From Branchiostoma floridae (lineage: Eukaryota; Chordata; Leptocardii; Amphioxiformes; Branchiostomatidae): a stretch of 64,000 bases of DNA. The translations under genes and the position numbers were made by a program. The stretch lies in assembly GCF_000003815.2 (NCBI RefSeq), contig NC_049993.1, forward strand, positions 3,179,371 through 3,243,370, given 5' to 3'. How positions within the stretch are numbered: the stretch's first letter is position 1; each line of letters begins with the position of its first letter. Below, one piece after another: positions 1,831 to 58,168 of the stretch. The notes below the pieces were generated by a model. That model saw nothing but the letters and a program-made list of their open reading frames with translations, was not told where the DNA came from and made no database searches.

Positions 1831-1989
1831 AATAAGGGGATCTTAAGCTTATCATCTTTTTGTTCAAATATAGAAATTTCAACCATTTCACACAATCAAT
1901 TTAGAAATAAAGGGGTATAAAATTATAGTGATAGTTATAATCAACAAAGAGCAGGCGTCATAAGTTATCAGATTATAATTCAAACTTAC

Positions 1990-2869
1990 CTCAGAAAGTT
2001 GGACGCCAGTACGTACGGTCAATCCGCCAACCTGAACCATGCTGGGCATGGAGGGACTGGGAAAACCTAGCACAGTGTCGCTCTGATACAGCCACAAGTC
2101 CGTGCGTGACGTTACGCTCTGGATGGTTTCATTATCGCTAATATAATTACGGACCAGATCGTTATATACGTAACCGTAAATCCAGCTTTTCAAGATGGTT
2201 GAAAGACCAAAGAACCATGCATTCTCCACTCTTTGTAGAAAAGTCATTTGGTCAGTAAATGGCGATTCGACTGTCGGTATGTATGACAATGGTAGCGGTA
2301 CACCGGTAGCAATTTTGTCGAAAAATGTGCCACCGTCGGAACTGATTGCGACGTGGGGGATCCCGAGGTTTGCTGCCACTATAGTGCCACATCTTAAAAG
2401 GGGGTCAGAAATAACAACGCTGTATTGTGCTGTCTTCAATCGACCCAACAGGCCACTATCCTGCCTACCCCCCCCCTCCCAATAGATGCTCGCAGTGTTT
2501 CTTTGCGAATTCAGACGTTTCAGATATTATTTTTAGTTCTTCGTAGGCAGATACAGATTCTGCCATTCCAAGGATGTTGTGTTGGAATTCTCGAAGGCGT
2601 GCCCCGAAACCTTGGTCTTGAAATGTCTCAAACGTAAAGTCAGGCCTCTCTGTGCGTCGTTTCTCAACGATGTCATCTTCAATAACCACGGTGACAGCAT
2701 GGTCCCTCTCCACCAATGCCTGCCCGATTGACGCCTCTACCATCCAGTGGCTATTGAAACATGGCATTGGTACCAACAGAACCTTCTCTGCACTGCTCGG
2801 TTGGCTGAGCATGAAGCACAGGAGAACAAGAGGGATGATGGAAAAGTGACGCTTCAGTCTCCCGTCCAT
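1990..2869 (-). pseudogene. UDP-glucuronosyltransferase first coding exon, frameshifted
   Basis: UGTs transfer a sugar from a UDP-sugar to lipophilic acceptors in the ER lumen. Reading starts at the ATG ending at 2869. It opens with a signal peptide (about residues 1-27, core IIPLVLLCFML), then a UGT N-terminal beta-strand and helix (PMPCFNSHWMVEASIGQALV, followed by RDHAVTVVI) with His in the usual catalytic region. After HCEHLLGG the frame ends at a TAG beside nine C's (2468-2476). Homology resumes one frame over, with SDPLLRCGTIVAANLGIPHV typical of UGTs, and runs to a GTAAGT donor at 1989. One base gained or lost in the homopolymer explains this. It could be an assembly error or a real pseudogene. 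The C-terminal UDP-sugar-binding exons are not visible at 1-1989, so they lie off the window or are lost. Family call is firm, functionality uncertain. Confidence 0.8.
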
Positions 2870-2971
2870 GTTGTCACGTGCGGTACTGACCCACGAATGA
2901 TTGTATGTGAAGTGAGGGAGTGTATTGATACCCTGAGAAAGATTCCACTAAGCGTAACGGTACTCGACAAA

Positions 2972-4753: not shown

Positions 4754-7700
4754 GTAACTTTGATTTTTTCAAGGATTGAAGGGGAGGGGTAGATTAAAAG
4801 CTGCGTGTGCACAGCAAAGGCCACAGATGGTAAAACCCGGGCAATGGACAGCTTTACTTCGACATGTCTAGCAGGGGTACCATATTATGCACAACGATTT
4901 GTGTCATTACTTGAGGCCAGAAGCGAAAGAACCGTACTAAAAATTCTGGTCTTTTCATACTAAAGCTACGTCAGGGCTTCAATTTCTAAGCGGAATCTTG
5001 TCTCTGGCACTCTGCACTCGTTTTCCAGTGCTCAGGACTCCACTCAGTGCTTTAACACAGAAGGCTGGTTGAAAGGCTATACAGCACTGGTTATAGAATA
5101 TGCATTTAGAATTCGAAACCGCAAGAAGGATATCACAAATAGCGTACACTATATGCCCCCCCCCCCTCTGAAGTGTCTGAAAAAACTTCACATGGTGCAG
5201 TTCACACGCTTAGGCTACTCATGAGAGGCAGGTTTTTCCCAGAGAAAAACATAGATAAAAGAAATATAGTTCCACGACCACAAACCTTCGCCAAAAAAAG
5301 GTTTGTTATGTAAAATGATGTCATAAATGTGTTCATCATATTCGCCAAGATAATGTATTCTTTTACACGGGTCTGTATGTGGGTTAACAGCATATAAGTC
5401 GAGAAATTGTCAATGGATCTTTTTGACCTATAATAAGTGTGTAGCGGTTGTTCAAAGGCATTGCGGTCTGTTTTGTTTAGCATAAGTCAAAATGCAGCTG
5501 GAGGATTTTCACGATATTTGGTAGGTGTGTAGCTGTTGTAGAGAGGATTGTCAATGGTGAATTGATCTTTTTGACTTTTGGTAGGTGAGTAGCGGTCGTG
5601 CAAAGGCATGCCTAGTTCGAAAACGGTTTACCTAGCGTTTTACCACGGTACAGCAGCGAGCTTTGTATTTTTTAAAGTTTGGTTTGGACAGCAAGTCAAA
5701 TTGCAGCTGGAGGATTTTCACGATATTTTGTAGGTGTCTAGCGGTTGTAGAGAGGATTGTCAAGTGTGAGATTGGTTTAGCTAGCTTTTACCTATTGTAA
5801 AAACCTGGCGGCGAGTTGCGGTACTGAAACGATTTTTAGTGGTAGATAGGCCTTAGTGTAGGGAGCAAGTCGTATTGATTTGGCCCCCCTGGTGGCTTGC
5901 GATGAACCTTTTTGTTTATAACTTTGAGAAGGATAACTCCAGTGAGGCAGGCAGGTACTGTATGTGATGATTAACATGTCATATTTATTTACGCAAAGTA
6001 AGGTGTCATTCCTTAGATATTGGGTAGAATGTGTAATTTTCCATTCAAGCTATGAACTGATCTCTGTTCAGGGACAGTATCTGCCTCTGTTTCCGTAATA
6101 AGTTGGAAAGTAGGTCAGATAAACAACCAATGCCATGCAGGGTGTTTGGTTTATTTTTCAAGCTTCTGAATTAGGGGTCGTGTTTTTCAACTTAGCACGA
6201 TGTGAGGAAAGATGCACAAAAGCTAGAGTTCCACAAACACATATCTTTGTCAAATAAACAAGGGTTATTTTGAAGAGTGCCCGTTTACATTATGAATCCT
6301 TGATGTAATGATGGTCTTGTCCTATTGTAGATTTGAGTGGGTCATAAAGTTCTCTAATTTAACATCCACATGAGTGACTGAGTGACTGTCTGTAACCACA
6401 CAACTCGGGAAGCCTTGGATAGATCCTGGTGATATTTTGTAGGTGGGTATGTTTGTTTGGTAGGGGTCAGGAAATTCAATATTAAGTTAATAATGGCCCC
6501 TAGCGGCATTCTAAGGTACTGCAGTGGAACTTCAACTTTTTAATATAATTCCGGAGTTTAAATTAATGGGAATTCCATGCTTGTAGCGTCATGAAGCTTA
6601 GTGAAGGTGAAAATTATCAGACATGAATCATGCAGATTTAACATAATTTAGAAGAGGAGAGGTTAACCCTGGCTTGGGAGAGACGAACCTGGAGGCAACT
6701 CTCGATCTTCATGTCTACCTTGTCCCTCCAACGACCTGGAGGTCAAGGGACTAGGTAGGTAGGTAGGTAGAAAGAAAGAAACATGGCCGTCGTTGCATAG
6801 GTAAGATTTTCATATTTTGGACTTATGCATTTTTTTGAATATTGAATTAAGGACCTTTGTAATCCATAAATATCTATCTACAATAGGACAGGACCATCAT
6901 AACGCCAATGATTTATAAGGTCTGAAAAATAGGCATTCTTCATAATGAAAGTTTACTTGCAAGTTCATGCCCGAAGGCTTATTACAAGTACATGGTAGAA
7001 ACATAAGAAAGATACATGTGACAATGAACATTGATCAGCATAATTGTAAGAAGAAGATACTAGAATACTGTTGGCTATTTCTAAACAGGTTGGGTTTGAC
7101 TTCTTTTCTGGAAGTAGAGGTCAAACTAACCCTTGTTCAAAATAACCCTTGTTTATTTGGCGAAGATATGTGTTCGTGGAACTCTAGTTGCATCTTGTTT
7201 TATATGTTATTTGATAAAGTCACACAGACACTTATCATCTAGCGTTCGGTGACCTCATACATCCAAGAAATAATGAGAGTTTGTGTAAAGTTTATTTAAA
7301 TGACGGAATTATATAATTTCCTCATTGATTATGCAGATTAAGTCCTCATTTGCATAATATGTATATCTTTTAGCCATTCACGCACAATACGACTCTGACC
7401 ATAGGCGGTAGGCCATCGGGTTTTTGTTGAAATCAGTATTAGTTGGCTGTAATGGAATCCGACTCTGGTACTCAGTCCACGGAAAGATTCCCGAGAATCG
7501 TACACTTACACACTCGGTGTACTCGGTCCACGGAAAGATTCCCGAGAATCGTACACTTACACACACGGTGTACTCGGTCCACGGAAAGATTCCCGAGAAT
7601 CGTACACTTACACACACGGTGTACTCGGTCCACGGAAAGATTCCCGAGAATCGTACACTTACACACACGGTGTACTCGGTCCACGGAAAGATTCCCGAGA

Positions 7701-10700
7701 ATCGTACACTTACACACACGGTGTACTCGGTCCACGGAAAGATTCCCGAGAATCGTACACTTACACACACGGTGTACTCGGGCCACGGAAAGATTCCTGA
7801 GGATCGTACACTTAAACACACCTTATACTCGGTCCACGGAAAGATTCCCGAGAATCGTACACTTATACACACGGTGTACTCGGTCCACGGAAAGATTCTT
7901 GAGGATCGTACATTTACGCACACCTTGTACTCGGTCCACGGAAAGATTCCCGAGAATCGTACACTTACACACACGGTGTACTCGGTCCACGGAAAGATTC
8001 TTGAGGATCGTACACTTATGCACACCTGGTACTTGGTCCACGGAAAGATTCCTGAGAATCGTACACTTATACACACCTTGTACTCGGTCCACGGAAAGAT
8101 TCCCGAGAAGGTGTTACTTACTAGCCATGTAAGATTTCTGATAATAGATAAGATACGCAGCATTTTGTAAAGTCCAATCTCCGGGGAACAGCGTTACCAG
8201 CAGTACCATATCTGGCCGGTAGGGTCGCTGCTGCACAAGACGATACCGTCATTGCTAGCCAGACGCGAGACTCAGATTTCCCGCCAACGTTTCGGTGAAC
8301 CAAGTGCCCACTCTGTCACCGTGTAATAGTGTATGATTCTCGGGAATCTTTCAGTGGACTGGGTACACAGTGTATGTTAGTGTATGATTCTCGGAATTCT
8401 TTAAGTGTTGCCTGTTGAACAAACACATAATGTGTGTTAGTGTAATTGATTCTCGGGAATATTTCAGTGGACCGAGTACACTGAGTGTGTGATAGCCAGC
8501 GTATGATTCTTGGGAATCTCTGTTGAACGAGTACACACTATTTGAGTTCATAACTTTGGTACACGTACGACAAAGTGATACTGATTTAAACAAAAATTCG
8601 ATGGCCTACCGCCTATGGCCAAAGCAGCCACGTTAAAAACTATCCTCATGTGAAACCAGAACCACAATAGAACATTGGTTCTAACTCACTTTTCCTGCTG
8701 GTCACCTCTAGTGGTAACGCTCTTCCAGGGTAGCATTTCCTACCCACTTATTATTATGTAGTTTATGAAGTAACGTCAGAACATCACGCGTAGCGGAGTA
8801 AAGATGAGATCATTAGTGACGTTCTGCTGTGGACTCCAAAGCATGCTCATGCGGACAGAGGTAAACCACGTAAAACATATGTACATCAAATTTGCGTTGA
8901 TTCTGGCTGCTCGGCTGAAGATCTGCCCAAGGCTATGGAGGATAGGGAAGGATGGGGGAAGAGAGTCATGTCCATCCGTGCAACCAGCACGCCCGGATGA
9001 TGATGATGATGATGATGATGAGTGAAGTAAGCCCTCTTGGCGCTTCATCGGTCCGAACAGGGCTTTGGGAACGCGTTCGAGCCAACTGCGAAACTGTTCT
9101 ACACCCGTCGGCCTTTGCGCGACCTATCCCCGAAATCAAGAACGACGCAGAAGCACTGCGTACACAGTGCGTCTTTCAAGTTCAGCATGCTTGTTTATTA
9201 TTTGATTCAATGGACTGATTACACAATCCGGTAGTGTGTTGATTATTTACGTTACAAAGAAATAAACAGTGATTTCGACAAAAACTCGATGGCCTATCGC
9301 CCATGCTCTGGCGTCTCTTTAACCCTCATCCGACCGTATGGGGTCATTTTTGACCCCAGGCGTATATTTTGATCTGCCATAGCAACATTTTTCATCAGAG
9401 AAAAAATTCCTTCCATGAATTTGTTTGTATACATGTCTTACAACATCTACCAATTTTTCGCCGAGTTTTGCCCATTATTGTATAAGCTATACCTGAAAGT
9501 TTGTGTCTTGTTCGGTGGGGTCAAAAATGACCCCAGCCAATTATGAATCATTAATTACATAAATATCAAGATATTTCAATAAAATAACAGGCATTCCTCA
9601 TTATTGCTATTGCAGCAACAGGTTATAGTTGCTTAGATGAGTAAACACCGAATATTTTGAAAGAAATTTAGTATTTTAAGTGTAAAACACAGTTTTTCGA
9701 CATTCTGCATAAATTATGATAATACGCACTTATTACCTATGCTAATGAAAGTGAAAATGTTTCTAATTAATTAAAAAACAATATATGGACAGAATGTTCA
9801 GACGGAACCTACAAGAAAGATCTTTGCGGGAAAATAGACAATAGTTATTGTATGTATGTGTTTAGATGGCGGAATATGGTGCATAATTAAGTAATAAATT
9901 CGTTACTTTTCACAAATATTGTATTTTTTCTTGTTAAATAACATTATTATGCTATCAGCATGATTGCATCATCACAATTATTGTTTAGAAATTGATAAAA
10001 CAAAACATTGTTTAAGTAAGTTTAGTATGGTAGATTTTCAGAGCAAATTTGGGTTTTCCTCATTTTCTGCATAAATTATGATAATGAGTAATAACTACTG
10101 ACACCAAAACTTGTCAAAATATTTTTCATAGTTTAGTGAAACAGTAAATACATAGAAATGACAAAATAAGCCAGCAGAAATATGTCTATGAGCAAAACAA
10201 AATGGGGTCAAAAATGACCCCATACGGTCAGATTCGTCGTAAAAATGTAACGGTCGGATGAGGGTTAATTATAATGTCCATCGGCAAAATACTGAATCAG
10301 ATGTTCTTATTCTTCCAAAAATTACTGCAGTTGATGACTGCGAGCTTAATAGTATAGAAATATGTGTGTAAGAGAGGCTTGAAAAATTGAAAATTACTGG
10401 GTGGAAAGTATCCTCCCAGAGGAGGGTTCTGGGGTTACCCAGAATGCAATTTTGACCTTTGACCCCTGACTTCCGGTTGTTTGTCATGTGAGGTTGAAGG
10501 TGATTTCCAGTCTTGCCCAATTTTAGGGCTTTCTGCTCCGTGGCTGTGCAGTTTTAGGGCCCATTTTTTTTTAGTGTCGTCGATGAGGTAATGAACATTC
10601 CATTTACGTGTTCCTTTGGGGACAACGGTCATCCTATACGTTAGAGTTGGGTATTTTGTCTTCGAACAGCGTTACGTAAACATCAAGATATCTGCTCATT

Positions 10701-38589: not shown

Positions 38590-41500
38590 TTGTTCAAAAA
38601 ATGTGTTCAAAAGTCACTCGATTCGTTCAAAAGTCACTCAGGGATCAGGCCATACTTGTTAATCAGTTGGCACATGTACGGTATTGGCGAGTTTCTATAT
38701 CTATTGGTTCGTGCTGCTGGGCAATCTAACTTCTCACTGTTTCTGGTAGTGCGGCCAGTTATGTGAAATCTTTGCGGAGGTAGCCAGTCTCTGTACTCAG
38801 ATTTCAAGAGTGACTTAGCAAACTTAACACATAACAGTTCCCTTCTCTCAGATAGCCGTGACAGTCCTAGCCGTTGGAGTGCACGGTCGTATCCGACGTA
38901 GGAGTCACCAAGAATAATGCGGCACGTCCGTCTTTGGATCCGCTCAAGGCTTCGTTCCTGGGTTTTAGTGAGACCGGGGGACCAGGCAGGGGCTGCATAC
39001 TCCAGGATAGGTCTAATGTATCCTGTGTAGATGGTGGTGAGGTCACTGTCGGAGAAGTTGAACCTTTTGAGTCGTTTAAGGAAGTACAGCTTCTTAGCTG
39101 CTCTCCCCTCCATGTAGTACACTTGTTTGTCCCAGCGTAGGTTGTTTTGGACAAACACCCCGAGTAGTTTCAAGCTGGGCACTGCGGGCAGAGACACATC
39201 ACCTATTTGTAGCGATGGCAGCAATGGGGGATTCCGGCTAAAGTAGACATGCATGACCATACACTTACCACTATTCAAGAGCATATGGTTAGTTTTAGAC
39301 CAGGAGTTTAACTCATCCAGATCGCTTTGTAGAGTAGATGCCTGGTGTAGGGTTCTAGTTTCTAACATGTTCATGTCGTCAACATATTTCCACACAGAAC
39401 TGTTGGCGTCATTGCAGGCATCATCAATTAAGACGAGGAAAAGTATTGGTCCCAACAGAGTGCCTTGTGCAACTCCGCACGACAGATACTCCCATCCGGA
39501 CAGAGACCGTCGGTAGCGTACAACTTGCCGTCTGTTGGTGATAAAGTCACATATCCAGGGCACAAGTTCCGGTCTTAGGCCCTTATCTATCAGTTTTGTG
39601 ATCACTGTGTTATGGTGCAGCCTATCGAAGGCCTTTGAGAAGTCAGTGGCCAAGATTGAGCAAGTCGTAGATGGTTTGTCTGTAGCTTTGCATATACCGT
39701 CGACTAGGCTGACAATAGCATGTACAGTCGAGCGCCCTTTCAAGCTTCCAAACTGACGACTGTCAAAGTCAATGTCGTTCAAGATCCAATTCAGAGCGAA
39801 GTATTCAGCAATCTTGGAAAACTGAGATGTAAGGGAAATTGGTCTTAATTGGTCAAGTGTGGGTGGCTGAGATTTAGGAATGGGGACTACCACAGCTTCT
39901 TTCCACTGACTGGGCACGAGTCCTTCAGCGAAGGAGGTGTTGAGGATATGGCAAAAGGGATCGGCAAATTCACAAGCGAACTCCCGTAGTAGTTTCAGAG
40001 GTATACTATCAGGACCGGGTGCCCTGCTTGACTTGATTGCTAGGAGGCGCTTGTACACATCCCACACCTGGAGGGGAGGTAACTGTTTAGAGGCAGGTAG
40101 AAAGCTTGGTAGTGTGGTGAAGTCAAGCGGAGGGAGGGACTGTGATATTCCGGCAAACTTAGAATTGATGGCATTAGCTATAGCGGCGTTATCCTCAGTG
40201 TCAAGGCCCGGGACCTTGATCTCGGTCTCGCCCTTTCTAGCGTTGGCCATGTTCATCACTTCCTGGTGCCATTTACGCGGGTTGGCAGTTTTGAGGGAGG
40301 CGACTCTGTCCGTGAAGTGGTTCTTCTTGGCACGGGTTATAGCCCTGTGTGTCATGTTTCTGTACAGTTTCCAAACTTCAGGGCTCTGCTTGTGGAATGC
40401 TTTCTGCCTCAGGGCGATTAGACGTTTGACGTGGGGTGTGATCCATGGTTTGTCAGAACTGAGCGTCTTGATGGTTTTGATTGGGAAAAAGGTAGCAATG
40501 GCATCCTCGAGTGTTGCATGAAAGGCATTTGCCTTGGCGGTCGTGCCAGAAGCGTTGTACACCTCCGACCAGTCGTGGGTCGTGGCCCACCGGCCAAACT
40601 CAAAAAGATCTTGTTCACTCAGGTGTCTGATGTGTTTTACTGTAGGTTTGGTGGGAACATGGTCCTCCTTGGGGCTCCAGAGAACTGACAAGTGGTCACT
40701 CAGACCCACGGGAGGCAAGACTGTAGGGGGCTGATACTTGTTTTTCATATTCGTTACAATCAGATCCAGCATGGCGTTCCCTCTGGTGTTGTTTCGTACG
40801 ACTTGAGACATAACAGTACCTCTGCACAGTCCCGATATGTCGAGTCTATTGAAATCACCAAGAATGGCGATTCCACATTCGGGGTGTTTACTGCGGATCT
40901 TGTCAGAAACAGTCAACAGATGATCAATAAGGAGGTCTCCATTAGGTGAGCTAGGGGGGAAGTATACTCCACAGACAATGATTGCCGACAGGGGACGCGG
41001 TAGCCGCCGTGGTCTCGTCCAGACCCACACGCATTCAAGGCGTCCGGTACCTCGTATTCTGTCATATGCCTTGACATTATCTGTTGTTTGACATATACTG
41101 CCACACCACCTCCTCTCTTGTCTGTTCTGTGTGTTGAGAAGACATTAAAATCACTCACCGCAATGGCAGACTCGGGGTGGGAGTTTGATTCCCAAGTCTC
41201 AGACACAATAGCGATCTCTACTTTGTTGTAGGCCAGCGTCGCTTGGAATTCGTCTATTTTGTTTATTATAGATCTCGGGTTGCATAGGAACATTCGAGGG
41301 ATAGAAGCACGGACAGAAGACTTGGTTTGGGAGGCACAGTCGACGGGTACGTTACGTAATACTCTATCCCTCTTGAACACCGATGACGCACTGACTGATT
41401 TGCATCTGAATCGGTCAAGCAAAGAAGGGGGAGGGCGATGTCCCCCGATGGTAGGAATATTACGTGATACACTTCTACCTGCCTTCCTTCCCCGGGGTCT

Positions 41501-41600
41501 GCAACGCCGAAGCAGTCCGTTGGCGAGCAGGGACTTCTTGGCAAGAGAGTCAAGCGGGGCGATCACAGGACGCAGGCTCCGGAGTAATCCACTTGAGTAT
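38590..41600 (-). mobile_element. Nearly complete CR1-like LINE
   Basis: One element on the minus strand, with an endonuclease plus reverse-transcriptase ORF2, almost no 3' UTR, and two GAGTGACTTTTGAAC repeats right at the 3' end (about 38596-38640). CR1 elements typically end in short tandem repeats rather than polyA. The 5' end is placed near 41600 because coding similarity stops there. Confidence 0.85.
38634..41566 (-). pseudogene. LINE ORF2: endonuclease and reverse transcriptase, one frameshift
   Basis: The first part (41566 to about 41030) holds the start of the apurinic-type endonuclease (CNPRSIINKIDEF, SETWES, GGGVAVYVK). A single-base loss near 41035 shifts the frame. The second part (41030-38634) continues with WTRPRRLPRPLS, the endonuclease GDFN motif, then RT motif A (DFSKAFDRLHH), motif B (AQGTLLGPILF) and the YVDDM catalytic box. 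It closes with the CR1-type EYAAPAWSPGL...RIQRR tail and a stop at 38634-38636. Apart from the one shift it is intact, so insertion was probably recent. Confidence 0.9.
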
Positions 41601-52451: not shown

Positions 52452-52457
52452 TTTATT
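52452..52457 (-). terminator. Candidate polyadenylation signal
   Basis: AATAAA on the minus strand, about 210 bp downstream of the receptor-caspase stop codon. It is a plausible, unproven 3' end. Confidence 0.5.
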
Positions 52458-52667: not shown

Positions 52668-53278
52668 TCATTCTACGTTAAAGATGACTTCTTTTCGTAA
52701 AGTGCTATGGTTTGACGAAATCCAGCCAAACTTGTCGTCATTGATGTCGTTCATTTTGTCGCACACCATGGCCATGATGGTGGACAGACTGTGCATTGGG
52801 CCTAAAACTTTCAGCATTTGTGCCAAATGGAGCACATAAGGAGCCCCGTCCTTGCCACGCTTAGTCACATAGCCAGGAACAGTGGCAAGTCCAAGGAAGA
52901 AATCGGCATCGTGGCAGATGACGTTTAAAGGGACATCTTCACCAGGTGTGGCATCAAGGTCACCTTCAATACTTTCTTTTCCTTGGATTTTCTTTCCCTG
53001 ACTAGCCTGAATGAAGAACAGCTTTGGTTTGCCTTTCAGAGAGGGGCATTTGTTAGCATTGAATAGTTTCATGAGATCACAGATATCTAGGCCTACGTCA
53101 TCGGACGAGAAGACCTTTCCCGTGGTGCCGTGCGACATGATGCAGCAAGCGAAACAGTCGTAGTTGGAGTGGTCGGCCTTTGCCTGATCCTTTATAGTTG
53201 CCACCATCTTGGAGTGGTCAAGGTCACTGAATGTCATTGCAGTGAAACTAAGGCTTTCGAAGGCTTCTCGAAGACGAC
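52668..53278 (-). CDS. Receptor-caspase exon 5 (caspase large and small subunits)
   Basis: Residues 381-583 and a TGA. It contains CCIMSHGTTGKVFSSD (catalytic His), KPKLFFIQASQGKK (nucleophile position now Ser), an acidic linker (GDLDATPGED) where caspases are cleaved, and the small-subunit ADFFLGLATV and TLRKEVIF motifs. The acceptor is TTTCATACAG. Confidence 0.92.
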
Positions 53279-56200
53279 CTGTATGAAATGTATACACAGA
53301 CAGAAAACTAAGTTTTTGTTGTGTGTATACATGTATTATATAGAAAAAAATCAATGAATTCATCCATCGTTCCATCTATAGTTTGATTTCATATCCTTAC
53401 CTGTATCTCCTTCAGCCCCTCCACGGTCGGCCATGTCCTCAAAGTGGATGTTGTTAATGATGACGGCAATTCCACATGGTTTGCGGCTGAAGCTGTATGT
53501 GCTCATGTTCTTGGTTGTAAAGTGGGTGATCTGGTCTTTCAATCGTGCGACCTCTCCCTTTTCAGATTCTACCTGGTTCTTTAGATGGATATTTTCCTCT
53601 TCAACCCTTTGACAGAGGTCGAAAGCGATTCTTTCAGCTTCTTTTTGACGTGTGAGTTCTGCCATTATGCGATTGTTATAAAGCTGAAATTGTTTTTTGC
53701 TTATCAGCCTCCCTTCCCGAAAGTTAATGTTATATAAGACGAACGACCAGATCGCTAAAACTAAAGTCACGACAACTACCAGAACGATCCAAAACACATT
53801 TTCTATCCCCAGGGAATTTTCGCCGTCGGAGGTATGTAAGCCGGTGGTGTCATTAGAGGTTGAGTCTGTGAAGAAGCGACAATAATTATTACACATAAAA
53901 TTTTCATTTCGTCAAAGTTTATGTCTTACAGCGCCTTTAAAATATACCATATTGTTAAGAAAGCGACGTTGCACCACCCTACAAGCAGATCTTGCTGTGG
54001 AATAAGATAGTATCATAAGCTGGCGAAGGAGTTTAGCTGGCAAAAGATTTTCATTGGAGGTAGGCTCTTGGACTCGATATGGCGAAACGCGAAGCGCGAC
54101 CATCACCATATAGAGGCGAAACGCGCGGCGCATATCGCCACTTGGTGGCTAAAAGCGAGTTCTCGATTTTCTCCCCCTGGAAGCGGCAGCGCGAAGAGCA
54201 ATACAAATCATGTGCTAAACATCGCGTTTTGCGCCGTCACCGGGCGAAATGCGACAACTCGATTTTCTCCCCCATGATGCGGTAACGCGAAACGTTATAC
54301 AAAACACGCATTGACAACCAGTTACGATTTTCTTTTTACGAAACACGTAACGCTATTGGTTACTGTTTGCCCTTCTGTTACATGTTTAGCTTATAGGGCT
54401 TATAGTGATAATTGTAATCAGCAATCGTTAGTTTGTAAATGACCGTTTATATACATGTACTGTAGTAACGATGTGTTTAGTTTTGCTGCCACAGGACCCG
54501 GTTACGGGGCTGGGAATCATCACAAGACAAATCGCAACAACTTGCAAATGTGTGGTGCGATATAATCAAGTACGCAAAAATGAGACTACAAGACTGTGTT
54601 CTTGCATACATTTATTAAAATAGATACAGAATTTACAACTAGAGTTCCACGAACACATACCTTTGCCAAATAAACCAGGTTTGTTATGTAGAATGATGTC
54701 TGTAGATAAATGCGTTACTCATTTCATTTTCTTTATAATTATATGCTTGGAGTTGGTTGATAAAATTTTGGCATTGATTATGCAAATTAGATCCCAAGTT
54801 ACAATTGATTGATATCAAATTGTATCAAGCATTACTTGTGTTTACATTCATATAGCCCGTGGAGCTGCTTGATCAGCTATCGGCTCCGTGTGTTTTGTTT
54901 TACAGTATCCCTGCATAGAGCCCTAAACACCGATTTGTTGATGGTGACGTGAACCAAGTGTTTACATTCATATAGCCCGTGGAGCTGCTTGATCAGCTAT
55001 CGACTCCGTGTGTTTGTTGTTTACAGTATCCCTGTATAGAGCCCTAAACACCGATTTGTTGATGGTGACGTGAACCAAGTGTTTACATTCATATAGCCCG
55101 TGGAGCTGCTTGATCAGCTATCGGCTCCGTGTGTTTTGTTTTACAGTACCCCTGCATAGAGCCCTAAACACCGATTTGTTGATGGTGACGTGAACCAAGT
55201 GTTTACATTCATATAGCCCGTGGAGCTGCTTGATCAGCTATCGGCTCCGTGTGTTTGTTGTTTACAGTATCTCTGTTCGTTCGTTCGTCCCATAGCCTTT
55301 TAATCAGCCGTATCTCTGTATAGAGCCCTAAACGCCGATTTGTTGATGTTGACGTGAACCAAGTGTTTACATTCATAGTGCGCAGAGCGCTTCTTGTTCA
55401 GCTATCGGCTCTGTGCTTGTTGTTTACAATATCTCCGTATAACGTGAACCAAATATTTACATTCATAGTTCGCATTTGTTGAAGGTGCTAGTTCAGCCCG
55501 TCCCCGTTTGTTTTTCTTCTACGAGAGAAGCTTCTCCATGGATTAAAAAAAAAATCATGAAGGTGACGAGAACTAAGTGTTTGCATTCATTAGTGCGTAG
55601 AGCCCGTTTCGTGGAGCTGGAGGGCTGTACGAGCAACCTCCATGGAGGTGCTCTGTGGAGCTCCTCCATGGAGGTTGCTCGTGCAGCCCCTATTGCCCCA
55701 AGTGGCGATATTTTTTTTTTTTTTATGCGCCGCGCGTTACGCTTCTATATGGTGATGGTCGCGCTTCGCGTTTCGCCATATCGAGTCCAATGGCCTACCT
55801 GATTGGCCACAGCTAAGCCAATAAAACTCCTCTGCCGGGTAACTCTTTTCAAAGCTTGTGATACTATCATATGCCACAGCAAGACCTGCTTGGAAATTGA
55901 AGTTGCACCATGTCGGGTAAAAGAAGTAAAATTTTACTGACAACAGTAGAGCATTTGTCAGAATATATGTATGACTATGTAGACAGATGGCGGCCCATAT
56001 GAGCTAGATGACTGATACTGTCGCCATAAAACATGATAATGACAAAAAAGTTGTTTAGTTTTATATATGTTTATTATTGTCTAAAAATTCTTTGGTCATA
56101 TGATAAGTAGTTTAGGTTTGGATCTCAAAAGCCTGTTTGAAAAATGCACATTTTGCTGGGGTCAGTTTTCATCCCACTGGACCATGCATAAACTTTCTAC

Positions 56201-58168
56201 GATAACTTAATCAACAATAAGCCAAACTGAGTAAAAAAACGTAGGAGAAGCTATAAGACATATATACAATCAAACTCAAGGGAGGAATTTTGTTTTCGAC
56301 AAGAAATGTCACAATGGCACACATTGACATACGTATGGGGTCAAATTAAACTAAATACGGTGGTTTGAGGGTTAAAGCTTCGCTGCAGTACGACAACGTT
56401 TCACTAGGAGGTTAATTTCTGTACTTAACCTTCCTTTTTGCTACCCCTACCCACCTACTAAAATATAGATCACAACCACCCACATTACTTCGAAAGTAAG
56501 GTTGTTCACAAACAAACGCACTAAAGTAAGGTTGTTCACAAACAAACGCACTAACATAAACAGCCCGCTCCAGCATCGTAGGAAAAAGCGAGGTCAGTTA
56601 TTGTCAAACATGGCCTTTCTTTTTACAAACGGTACATACCTACCAAATATCATAAAGATGCATCAAAAACTTATGTTGTCCACAGCCAAACCCAGTTATA
56701 TACTCAGTTCGTTGCAGCACAGTAAGAAAAAGCCAGATCAACCATTTTCGAACACGGCTCCTCTTTTCAACAAACGCTAAACGCCTACGTAATTGATATC
56801 CATCAACGACATTTCGAGTTATCTTGTTTACAGCCAAACTCACATGTTTACGTATAAAGCCAGCTACGGCATACTAGGTAAAAGCCATGGTTGTCCAGTA
56901 AGACAGAGGACGCCAAAAGAAGCAAAAAAATGATAGAAACTGTTCTGATTCTAGGTAAATGACTGGTGAAAAGATGACTTACCTGTAATGGTGGTATTAC
57001 CAGCACAAGTGCCGCACACGTTGTCCCTCCTGTGATGTCCTCTGTGGACAACGCATTCCCCTTTGGATGCACAGTCTGTGTGGGGCCTGCACACAGACGT
57101 GCTGGAGATCTCGTCTGAAAAGGTTCCAGACCTACAGCGCATGCATCTGGTGTCCGTCTGATGAGTACCTTTAGTGTAAATGTGACGAAAGAAGAGGAGG
57201 GAGGTGCACTTAGATATGGCAAGCTGAGCAACGCAATGTCAGTATATAAAATGTAGGATGATATAATGGTAATGGTAAAAAAAATACAAGAAAACATCGT
57301 TACAAAGATAATTTATACATTATAAAACTAAACATTTTGATCTGCGTATAATGTGACGTTCACCCTACCTTTTTCTGTGACACCCTGGCCTTTGGGGCAT
57401 TTTGTGTGCTGTAAGCAAATGGCCGACATGTGTGTCTTGAAGTACCCATTGTCACATTCACACTGCCTGTTTTGCACGGCTGTACACGGTAGGGTTTCAT
57501 GTTCATGTCCATATAGGGTTTCGTATTCATGTCCATATAGGGTTTCGTATTCATGTCCATATAGGGTTTCATGTTCATTTCCATTGTTCATCAGGTTACA
57601 CTGGCGGCAGCTGTGACAGCGGTACCAATGGTTGTACTCTTCCGTGTACTGTTCCCTGGGACAGGGCTGACACAATGTGGGGGTCTGCCCCGTACAAGGA
57701 CGGCTCATGTACTCGCCGGGCGTACACCAATTACATTTTACATATTCTCCTGAAGTAGGGTCCTTATACCGCCACTTGGGGGGCGAGTTTAACGCATTGG
57801 CTCTGGATGCAAGGAAAATAATCTGACGAAAAAAGGAAACCACATTCAAATATTAATATCTGTATGACTACAAAGTAAGGAAGAAATTCTGAAATAAAGG
57901 TATTAAATTTACTAAGAAAAATTAAAGATGAAAAATGATCCTATAATTTATGCAAAGCTATAAACATAGACATTAATGCAAGCTAAGTCTTCTAGGGAAG
58001 GTTTCCTGCTTAAACGTAAAAGGTGGAATGCATATTACTAACAAAATTTACTCCAACCCCTTATCCCCCTGGGAAAACACCACACCTGTCCAATGGGTAA
58101 ATATAAATACTAAAGTACAAGTATTGTCCTACCGTGACATACACGAAAGTATAGCTGTGCAGAGACAT
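52668..58168 (-). CDS. TNF-receptor / transmembrane / pseudo-caspase fusion protein, 5 exons
   Basis: Minus-strand join 58168-58133, 57822-57369, 57168-56983, 53865-53401, 53278-52668. All junctions are GT-AG with phases 0,1,1,1, giving 583 aa. Order: signal peptide (about 1-22), three TNFR cysteine-rich domains (about 42-218), stalk with NTT and NDT glycosylation sites, one TM helix (249-270), coiled coil (about 290-340), caspase-8-like domain (about 350-583). The domain keeps H430-G431, R373 and R521 (S1-pocket positions) and ADFFLGLATV, but reads QASQG at 471-475 where active caspases have QACxG, so the nucleophile is Ser473. No death domain, DED or CARD is visible. Expected role, inferred: a cell-surface receptor whose cytosolic tail binds or titrates initiator caspases, like cFLIP. 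Alternative: an ATG at 53896, in frame before exon 4, could start a separate membrane-anchored caspase. Confidence 0.85.
53401..53865 (-). CDS. Receptor-caspase exon 4 (TM, coiled coil, caspase start)
   Basis: Residues 226-380: a Ser/Thr-rich stalk, then VFWIVLVVVVTLVLAIWSFV as the membrane helix. A charged heptad-like segment (QRVEEENIHLKNQVESEKGE) follows, then KPCGIAVIINNIHFEDMADR, the first strand of the caspase fold. The acceptor is CTTCTTCACAG and the donor GTAAGG. Confidence 0.9.
54838..55460. repeat. 120-bp tandem repeat inside the element
   Basis: GTGTTTACATTCATATAGCC starts units at 54838, 54958, 55079 and 55199. A fifth, longer unit and degraded ones follow to about 55620. Units are more than 95% alike by eye. 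Confidence 0.9.
55636..55692. repeat. Short hairpin built from two CCTCCATGGAGG palindromes
   Basis: CGAGCAACCTCCATGGAGG and its inverse are separated by a few bases. Each arm holds its own CCTCCATGGAGG palindrome, so alternative cruciforms are possible. Confidence 0.85.
55900..56980. other. Intron sequence with dispersed repeat debris
   Basis: A TGAGGGTTAA end near 56369 and an upstream GGGGTCA motif recall the TTAA elements. AAGTAAGGTTGTTCACAAAC is directly repeated at 56498 and 56525. No exon is required here by splice phase. Confidence 0.45.
56983..57168 (-). CDS. Receptor-caspase exon 3 (third TNFR cysteine-rich domain)
   Basis: Residues 164-225: THQTDTRCMRCRSGTFSD, followed by CRPHTDC and DNVCGTC, the classic TNFR pattern DTxCxxCxxGTFS...C..HT.C. 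Acceptor CACTAAAG, donor GTAAGT, phase 1 at both ends. Confidence 0.92.
57369..57822 (-). CDS. Receptor-caspase exon 2 (TNFR cysteine-rich domains 1-2)
   Basis: Residues 13-163. It has the end of the signal peptide (IIFLASRANA), CRD1 (CTPGEYMSRPCTGQTPTLCQ, then PC) and CRD2 (REQYTEEYNHWYRCHSCRQC). CRD2 is interrupted by an 8-residue repeat before PCTAVQNRQCEC. It ends CPKGQGVTEK. The acceptor is TTTTTTCGTCAG and the donor GTAGGG. Confidence 0.9.
57491..57578 (-). repeat. 24-bp coding minisatellite within CRD2
   Basis: Three full 24-bp units (57491-57514, 57515-57538, 57539-57562) and a partial fourth. Translated, they give repeated ETLYGHEY-type octapeptides between two CRD2 cysteines, so the array stays in frame and adds about 24 residues to one loop. 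Confidence 0.92.
58133..58168 (-). CDS. Receptor-caspase exon 1 (start and signal peptide)
   Basis: ATG at 58168 encodes MSLHSYTFVYVT and ends at a GTAGGA donor in phase 0, matching the phase of exon 2. Joined to IIFLASRANA it makes a convincing signal peptide. An in-frame TGA lies 12 bases upstream, supporting this start. The donor is not a strong consensus, so this exon is less certain than the rest. Confidence 0.7.

What the first reader, a model, noticed from the sequence alone, without database searches (positions are those of the whole stretch)
52668..58168. TNF receptor fused to a membrane-anchored caspase domain
One minus-strand model of five phase-matched exons joins a signal peptide, three TNFR cysteine-rich domains, a TM helix, a coiled coil and a whole caspase-8-like domain. 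Known death receptors recruit caspases through DD and DED adaptors; here the caspase fold sits on the receptor itself and no adaptor domain is visible. Cysteine spacing, TM position and phase 1 at all three domain-linking junctions argue against a chance join. I do not recall a described vertebrate protein of this layout.
Basis: partly seen in the sequence, partly recalled or inferred. Interest (0 to 1): 0.93.

Follow-up and report, generated by a model that had tools for sequence, protein, structure and literature searches.

The report
Amphioxus TNF receptor with inactive-looking caspase
A lancelet gene encodes a cell-surface TNF-type receptor fused to a caspase, a layout already published in 2008, but this copy has lost the cysteine that a caspase cuts with, so it may be a built-in brake or helper for its two intact sister receptors.

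Summary
Five minus-strand GT-AG exons (58168-52668) give a 583-residue frame: leader, TNFR cysteine-rich repeats, one hydrophobic segment, a likely coiled coil and a caspase-8-like domain. Junction phases are 0,1,1,1. The genome holds at least two more genes of this layout on the same chromosome, 82 kb and 12.4 Mb away, with the same phases wherever read. A chance join is not credible.

The claimed novelty does not hold. Amphioxus TNFR-caspase proteins were described, with cDNA support, in 2008 (PMC2575513).

The motif reads QASQG: the catalytic Cys is Ser473 (AGT, 53003-53001). The other aligned active-site residues are kept. All 16 other homologous exons that I read have Cys, including both sister receptors. 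The domain is still constrained (terminal-branch omega 0.295; omega = 1 rejected, 2dlnL 12.6).

My best reading is a ligand-clustered pseudocaspase receptor that pairs with its active sisters and tunes them, as c-FLIP-L does for caspase-8. Unresolved: one base makes the difference, no reads or second assembly were available, and the 2008 paper says all its TNFR-caspases carry QACXG. The Ser could be an allele or an assembly error.

The parts
58133..58168 (-). exon 1: start codon and first half of signal peptide (12 codons)
   Evidence: GT donor, phase 0; matching exon MSIQRYTFVYAT in paralogue A; exon 1 of paralogue B not found
57369..57822 (-). exon 2: rest of signal peptide and TNFR cysteine-rich repeats, ending in phase 1
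   Evidence: Pfam TNFR_c6; pieces 61-78% identical in two paralogues
57490..57584 (-). 24-bp x 4.0 in-frame tandem repeat (8-residue units of the HEYETLYG type) lengthening a loop in the TNFR part; single unit or less in both paralogues
   Evidence: TRF, protein alignment
56983..57168 (-). exon 3: last TNFR repeats, phase 1 at both ends
53982..55892 (.). within intron 3: two nested inverted-repeat elements (arms 53982-54033/55841-55892 and 54058-54134/55724-55800) with a 120-bp tandem array 54838-55276
   Evidence: arms repeated elsewhere in the genome
53401..53865 (-). exon 4: stalk, transmembrane segment, likely coiled coil and first part of the caspase domain with the conserved pocket Arg (MADRGG)
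52668..53278 (-). exon 5: rest of caspase domain (large and small subunit parts), stop codon
   Evidence: Peptidase_C14; caspase-8 E 1.5e-32 for the domain
53001..53003 (-). codon AGT, Ser473, at the place of the catalytic Cys (QASQG for QACQG)
   Evidence: TGT/TGC in 16 of 16 other homologous exons read
52452..52457 (-). AATAAA, possible poly(A) signal about 210 bases past the stop
   Evidence: motif only

Best explanation
It is a real amphioxus TNFR-caspase receptor gene, one of at least three in this genome, in which the caspase domain has become a pseudoenzyme. Inferred mechanism: a TNF-family ligand clusters the receptor's cysteine-rich ectodomain, and the transmembrane segment and coiled coil bring the attached caspase domains together on the inside of the membrane. 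In the two sister receptors (QACQG) this proximity would switch on caspase activity directly, with no adaptor. In this copy Ser473 cannot do the cutting chemistry, but the domain sequence, the pocket arginines and the catalytic His are kept, so it would work as a pairing partner. In mixed clusters it would inhibit or allosterically support the active sisters according to dose, as c-FLIP-L does for caspase-8. Shown here: gene structure, domains, paralogues, Ser in place of Cys in this assembly, purifying selection. Inferred: expression of this copy, membrane topology, ligand, heterodimer, direction of the effect.
For: Intact five-exon frame and domains. Two sister genes of the same plan with QACQG. 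Catalytic codon AGT against TGT/TGC in 16 of 16 other homologous exons read (these are 16 of the 93 other caspase-domain places, many of which are exon pieces that I did not read). Active-site residues other than Cys aligned to caspase-8. Purifying selection on the window's terminal branch: caspase exon omega 0.295, omega = 1 rejected (2dlnL 12.60); TNFR part 0.45 (2dlnL 5.67); cytosolic exon 4 0.32 (2dlnL 6.18). No significant relaxation (2dlnL 0.25-0.40). No excess of odd changes in the caspase exon: 6, against 1 to 9 in the six close rows. Published: TNFR-caspase cDNAs in amphioxus (PMC2575513), the same paper's note that chemically induced dimerization of a caspase domain leads to apoptosis, and ratio-dependent c-FLIP-L/caspase-8 pairing (PMC7864959 passages).
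Against: The Ser rests on one base in one assembly; no reads, alleles or second species could be checked. PMC2575513 states that all its TNFR- and LRR-caspase proteins carry QACXG, so if this locus was among them, Cys alleles exist. The omega values are averages over the whole branch and do not date the loss of Cys, which may be very recent. The window branch is longer than its sisters'. No expression evidence for this copy was available, and no interaction was tested.
Confidence: 0.5

Rival explanations
1. The Ser is an assembly error or a minor allele. The gene is then an ordinary third member of the published TNFR-caspase family, an active receptor-protease.
For: One transversion TGT to AGT separates it from its close relatives. 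The rest of the domain shows no excess of unusual changes and no significant relaxation. PMC2575513 reports QACXG in all its TNFR-caspases.
Against: The rest of the frame shows no stop, frameshift or broken splice site, as a poor stretch of assembly might. No second, Cys-bearing copy of this locus is among the 53 matches: the next best match to the caspase exon is 82% identical. The 2008 set may not include this locus.
Confidence: 0.33
2. Recent loss of function: the gene is a decoy receptor or a gene on its way to decay, and the caspase domain does nothing.
For: Loss of the key residue, an expanded minisatellite in the TNFR exon, nested inverted-repeat elements in intron 3, and a somewhat longer terminal branch than its sisters (0.30-0.32 against 0.19-0.23).
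Against: 583 codons open with all splice sites intact. Omega on the terminal branch is below 1 in caspase, TNFR and exon 4 parts. The repeat is in frame.
Confidence: 0.14
3. Two separate transcripts: a TNFR-only receptor (exons 1-3) and a membrane caspase starting at the in-frame ATG (53896) just upstream of exon 4.
For: The caspase frame is open upstream of the exon 4 acceptor and holds an ATG there (ORF 53360-53911). Both paralogues also show an in-frame ATG shortly before exon 4. Intron 3 is 3.1 kb.
Against: Two paralogues keep the same exon order, strand and phase, with intron 3 of only about 0.6 kb by my exon places. cDNA of the fused form is published for the family. Exon 3 has no stop and a GTAAGT donor.
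Confidence: 0.03

Closest known systems
Amphioxus TNFR-caspase, JGI Brafl1_82667 and kin (PMC2575513, 2008)
   Same: Extracellular TNFR domain, predicted transmembrane protein, intracellular caspase; three genomic regions reported there, three genes found here; cDNA validated the architecture.
   Different: Paper says all carry QACXG; this copy has QASQG. Which of their scaffolds corresponds to this locus could not be mapped (the session allows no look-ups in supplements).
c-FLIP-L (CFLAR)
   Same: Pseudocaspase domain proposed to pair with the caspase-8 catalytic domain (PMC7864959).
   Different: c-FLIP is soluble and uses DEDs (recalled); here the pseudocaspase is part of a receptor, with Ser in place of Cys and the pocket arginines kept.
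Death receptor 6 (TNFRSF21) and other TNFRSF death receptors
   Same: TNFRSF21 is the best solved match for the cysteine-rich ectodomain; type I membrane layout.
   Different: No death domain found; the effector domain itself replaces the DD-FADD-caspase chain.
Caspase-8
   Same: Best solved match for the cytosolic domain, E 1.5e-32.
   Different: No DED prodomain found, membrane-bound by prediction, catalytic Cys absent in this copy.

Membership tests
TNFR-caspase receptors of amphioxus | TNFR cysteine-rich repeats and a caspase domain in one chain | tested here: met
   Pfam on the spliced frame; shared layout in paralogues A and B. The joining itself is a gene model, not a transcript
TNFR-caspase receptors of amphioxus | transmembrane segment between the two | tested here: met
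   mean hydropathy 2.89 at residues 251-269; no dedicated topology program run
TNFR-caspase receptors of amphioxus | QACXG active-site motif, as stated in PMC2575513 | tested here: not met
   QASQG
TNFR-caspase receptors of amphioxus | transcript joining the two parts | not testable with these tools
active caspases (MEROPS C14A, name recalled) | catalytic Cys-His pair | tested here: not met
   His kept (SHG), Cys is Ser473
active caspases (MEROPS C14A, name recalled) | substrate-pocket Arg, Gln, Arg (roles recalled) | tested here: met
   aligned to caspase-8 chains
death receptors (TNFRSF with DD) | cytosolic death domain | tested here: not met
   no death-fold family at E up to 1; among the 150 death-domain places scored (of 588 candidates) the nearest on this chromosome is about 0.8 Mb away
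c-FLIP-like pseudocaspases | heterodimer with an active caspase | not testable with these tools
   inference from homology only

The most novel reading that the evidence does not exclude
Amphioxus has a complete regulatory pair at the cell surface: adaptor-free receptor-proteases (TNFR-caspase) and a dedicated receptor-pseudoprotease from the same family that sets their threshold within mixed ligand-bound clusters, a membrane-bound parallel to the caspase-8/c-FLIP switch.
Probability: 0.3. Interest if true: 0.75.

Novelty: new variant of a known kind. Interest (0 to 1): 0.42.

Why it matters
The TNFR-caspase layout collapses the vertebrate chain receptor-adaptor-caspase into one molecule and has been in print for amphioxus since 2008. 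A naturally dead member beside sisters that keep the active-site Cys, with the domain under purifying selection, would show that regulation of a protease by a pseudoprotease also arose inside a receptor family without adaptors. It gives a simple system in which dose-dependent tuning of death signalling could be tested.

Tried and rejected
Chance join of neighbouring genes: rejected because two further loci keep exon order, strand and phases and the chance expectation is about 0.02. Two exon scripts placed boundaries one base wrong (exon 3; exon 4 of the paralogues); both were corrected. The tree of 16 caspase exons does not settle which sister is nearest, and support for the three-gene group is only 86/69. 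The relaxation test was therefore run on three topologies. The omega = 1 test was run on one topology only, the best-scoring of the three, and the TNFR and exon 4 tests on a three-row star. Row C14c was left out of the tree because part of it is masked; the omega tests on the caspase exon used 7 of 17 rows (the close ones). Only 17 caspase exons, the window's included, were read at the active site, out of 94 places. Literature: searches gave no report of a catalytically dead TNFR-caspase, judging from listings and from passages in four papers plus one section. Only open-licence papers are held and the session allows no look-ups in supplements, so this is weak evidence of absence. No structure prediction or fold search was run: loci from the genome search are not named among the sequences allowed for it, and the homology is already clear by sequence.

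Full report
OBSERVATION. The window lies at C15:3179371-3243370 of a 513-Mb assembly in 431 contigs. Size and gene content fit Branchiostoma floridae, but this identification is recalled, not tested. Joined, they give 1752 bases, 583 codons and a stop, with GT-AG borders throughout and phases 0,1,1,1. Pfam names TNFR_c6 (four stretches) and Peptidase_C14 and no death-fold domain. The ectodomain matches solved TNFRSF21 best (3.7e-30), and the cytosolic domain matches caspase-8 best (1.5e-32). The leader and the transmembrane segment are judged by sequence and hydropathy only.

NOT CHANCE. Searches of the whole genome with the two halves of the protein find two more genes of the same plan. Paralogue B lies on the same chromosome and strand, with its caspase exon at C15:3149744-3150349. 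Paralogue A lies at C15:15652618-15655682. Both have TNFR exons, an exon with transmembrane segment, coiled coil and caspase start, and a last exon with the rest of the caspase. Their phases equal those of the window gene where both sides could be read; exon 1 of B was not found, and part of an intron of B was not read. Other close caspase exons (C14:1.64-1.66 Mb, C13:3.48 Mb, C6:2.2 Mb) have a related coiled-coil exon but, by eye, no transmembrane segment in the stretches read. Death domains lie near two of the C14 exons (C14:1650323 and 1664502). The likely history is that a coiled-coil caspase gene acquired TNFR exons through phase-1 introns; this is inference.

PRIOR ART. PMC2575513 (2008; passages, section 9; first author Zhang by recall) describes 'TNFR-caspase' hybrid genes in amphioxus, model Brafl1_82667. 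It is a predicted transmembrane protein whose architecture was validated by cDNA, and the transcripts come from three genomic regions. The authors propose a shortcut from inflammatory-type signals to cell death and state that all their TNFR- and LRR-caspase proteins keep the active-site motif QACXG. A 2011 study of the amphioxus caspase family (PMC3196919, passages only) speaks of at least 45 caspase genes.

WHAT IS DIFFERENT HERE. The active-site pentapeptide is QASQG. The codon at 53003-53001 is AGT, where the two sister receptors and 14 other homologous exons have TGT or TGC (16 of 16). One search lists 94 caspase-domain places in all; I read the active site in 17, the window's included. 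The catalytic His (SHG) and the Arg, Gln and Arg of the substrate pocket (roles recalled) align with caspase-8. One of the aligned caspase-8 chains, 2k7z, itself reads QAAQG, and PMC7864959 calls C360A caspase-8 catalytically inactive (passages).

IS IT DECAYING? The window's terminal branch is 0.283-0.295 over three topologies, not different from the rest (2dlnL 0.25 to 0.40). Omega = 1 on that branch is rejected (2dlnL 12.60, one topology). On the three-row star the window branch gives 0.45 for the TNFR part (177 codons, 2dlnL 5.67 against 1) and 0.32 for the cytosolic part of exon 4 (94 codons, 2dlnL 6.18). With all three branches free the values for window, A and B are 0.47, 0.62 and 0.28 (TNFR) and 0.31, 1.26 and 0.46 (exon 4), so sister A, not the window gene, looks loosest there. 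The window's caspase branch is longer than its sisters' (0.30-0.32 against 0.19-0.23). Changes at columns invariant in the other six rows number 6 for the window, against 9, 7, 3, 3, 2 and 1 for the others. So the gene looks maintained, and the loss of Cys stands alone. These averages cannot say how recent that loss is.

OTHER FEATURES. Exon 2 carries a 24-bp tandem repeat, 4.0 copies (57490-57584), read in frame as units of the HEYETLYG type in a loop where the sisters have one unit or less. Intron 3 holds two nested inverted-repeat elements. The arms of both occur elsewhere in the genome (40 of 229 candidates scored). The outer arm forms seven close inverted pairs there, and the inner arm six pairs with about 1.3 to 6.7 kb between the arms.

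MECHANISM. Best reading: the ligand-clustered receptor brings caspase domains together. The two sisters would be self-activating membrane caspases. This copy would be a pairing partner without its own cutting power, comparable in action to c-FLIP-L, whose pseudocaspase domain stabilises or inhibits caspase-8 according to ratio (PMC7864959 passages). The main doubt is whether Ser473 is fixed. The 2008 statement that all have QACXG speaks against this if the locus was in that set. I put the pseudoenzyme reading at 0.5, allele or assembly error at 0.33, decoy or decay at 0.14, and separate transcripts at 0.03.

VERDICT. Real gene model and credible fusion; layout already published. The new point is a member with Ser in place of the catalytic Cys, worth a resequencing check.

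Noticed in passing
window 53982-55892: Nested inverted-repeat elements in intron 3: outer arms (52 nt, 83%) like a short palindromic element found at many places in the genome, inner arms (77 nt, 95%) of an element about 1.7 kb long, with a 120-bp tandem array inside.
   Followed up: partly
window 57490-57584: 24-bp minisatellite, four copies, in frame inside a TNFR exon; single unit or less in both paralogues.
   Followed up: partly
window 38634-41599: Reverse transcriptase match (RVT_1) in an 836-aa open frame at 38634-41144, with another long open frame just upstream that has no Pfam match; a non-LTR-like retroelement by appearance.
   Followed up: no
window 1888-2947: Two overlapping minus-strand frames match the N-terminal half of UDP-glucuronosyltransferase.
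   Followed up: no
window 7378-8193: Long tandem repeat open on both strands (units like [17 protein letters not shown]), probably a satellite rather than a gene.
   Followed up: no
L031 1501-2201 (C14:1649856-1650556): A coiled-coil/caspase-start exon followed within about 200 bases by a death-domain exon, so the related C14 genes may combine the domains in another order.
   Followed up: no
L022 (C8:3009917-3010501): A caspase exon whose open frame runs on into a several-hundred-residue proline-rich repeat tail.
   Followed up: no
C14:13357843-13379132 (L045, L048-L057, L059-L061): Cluster of TNFR exons 39-66% identical to the window ectodomain with no match (caspase) nearby; possible kin of the TNFR donor.
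   Followed up: no
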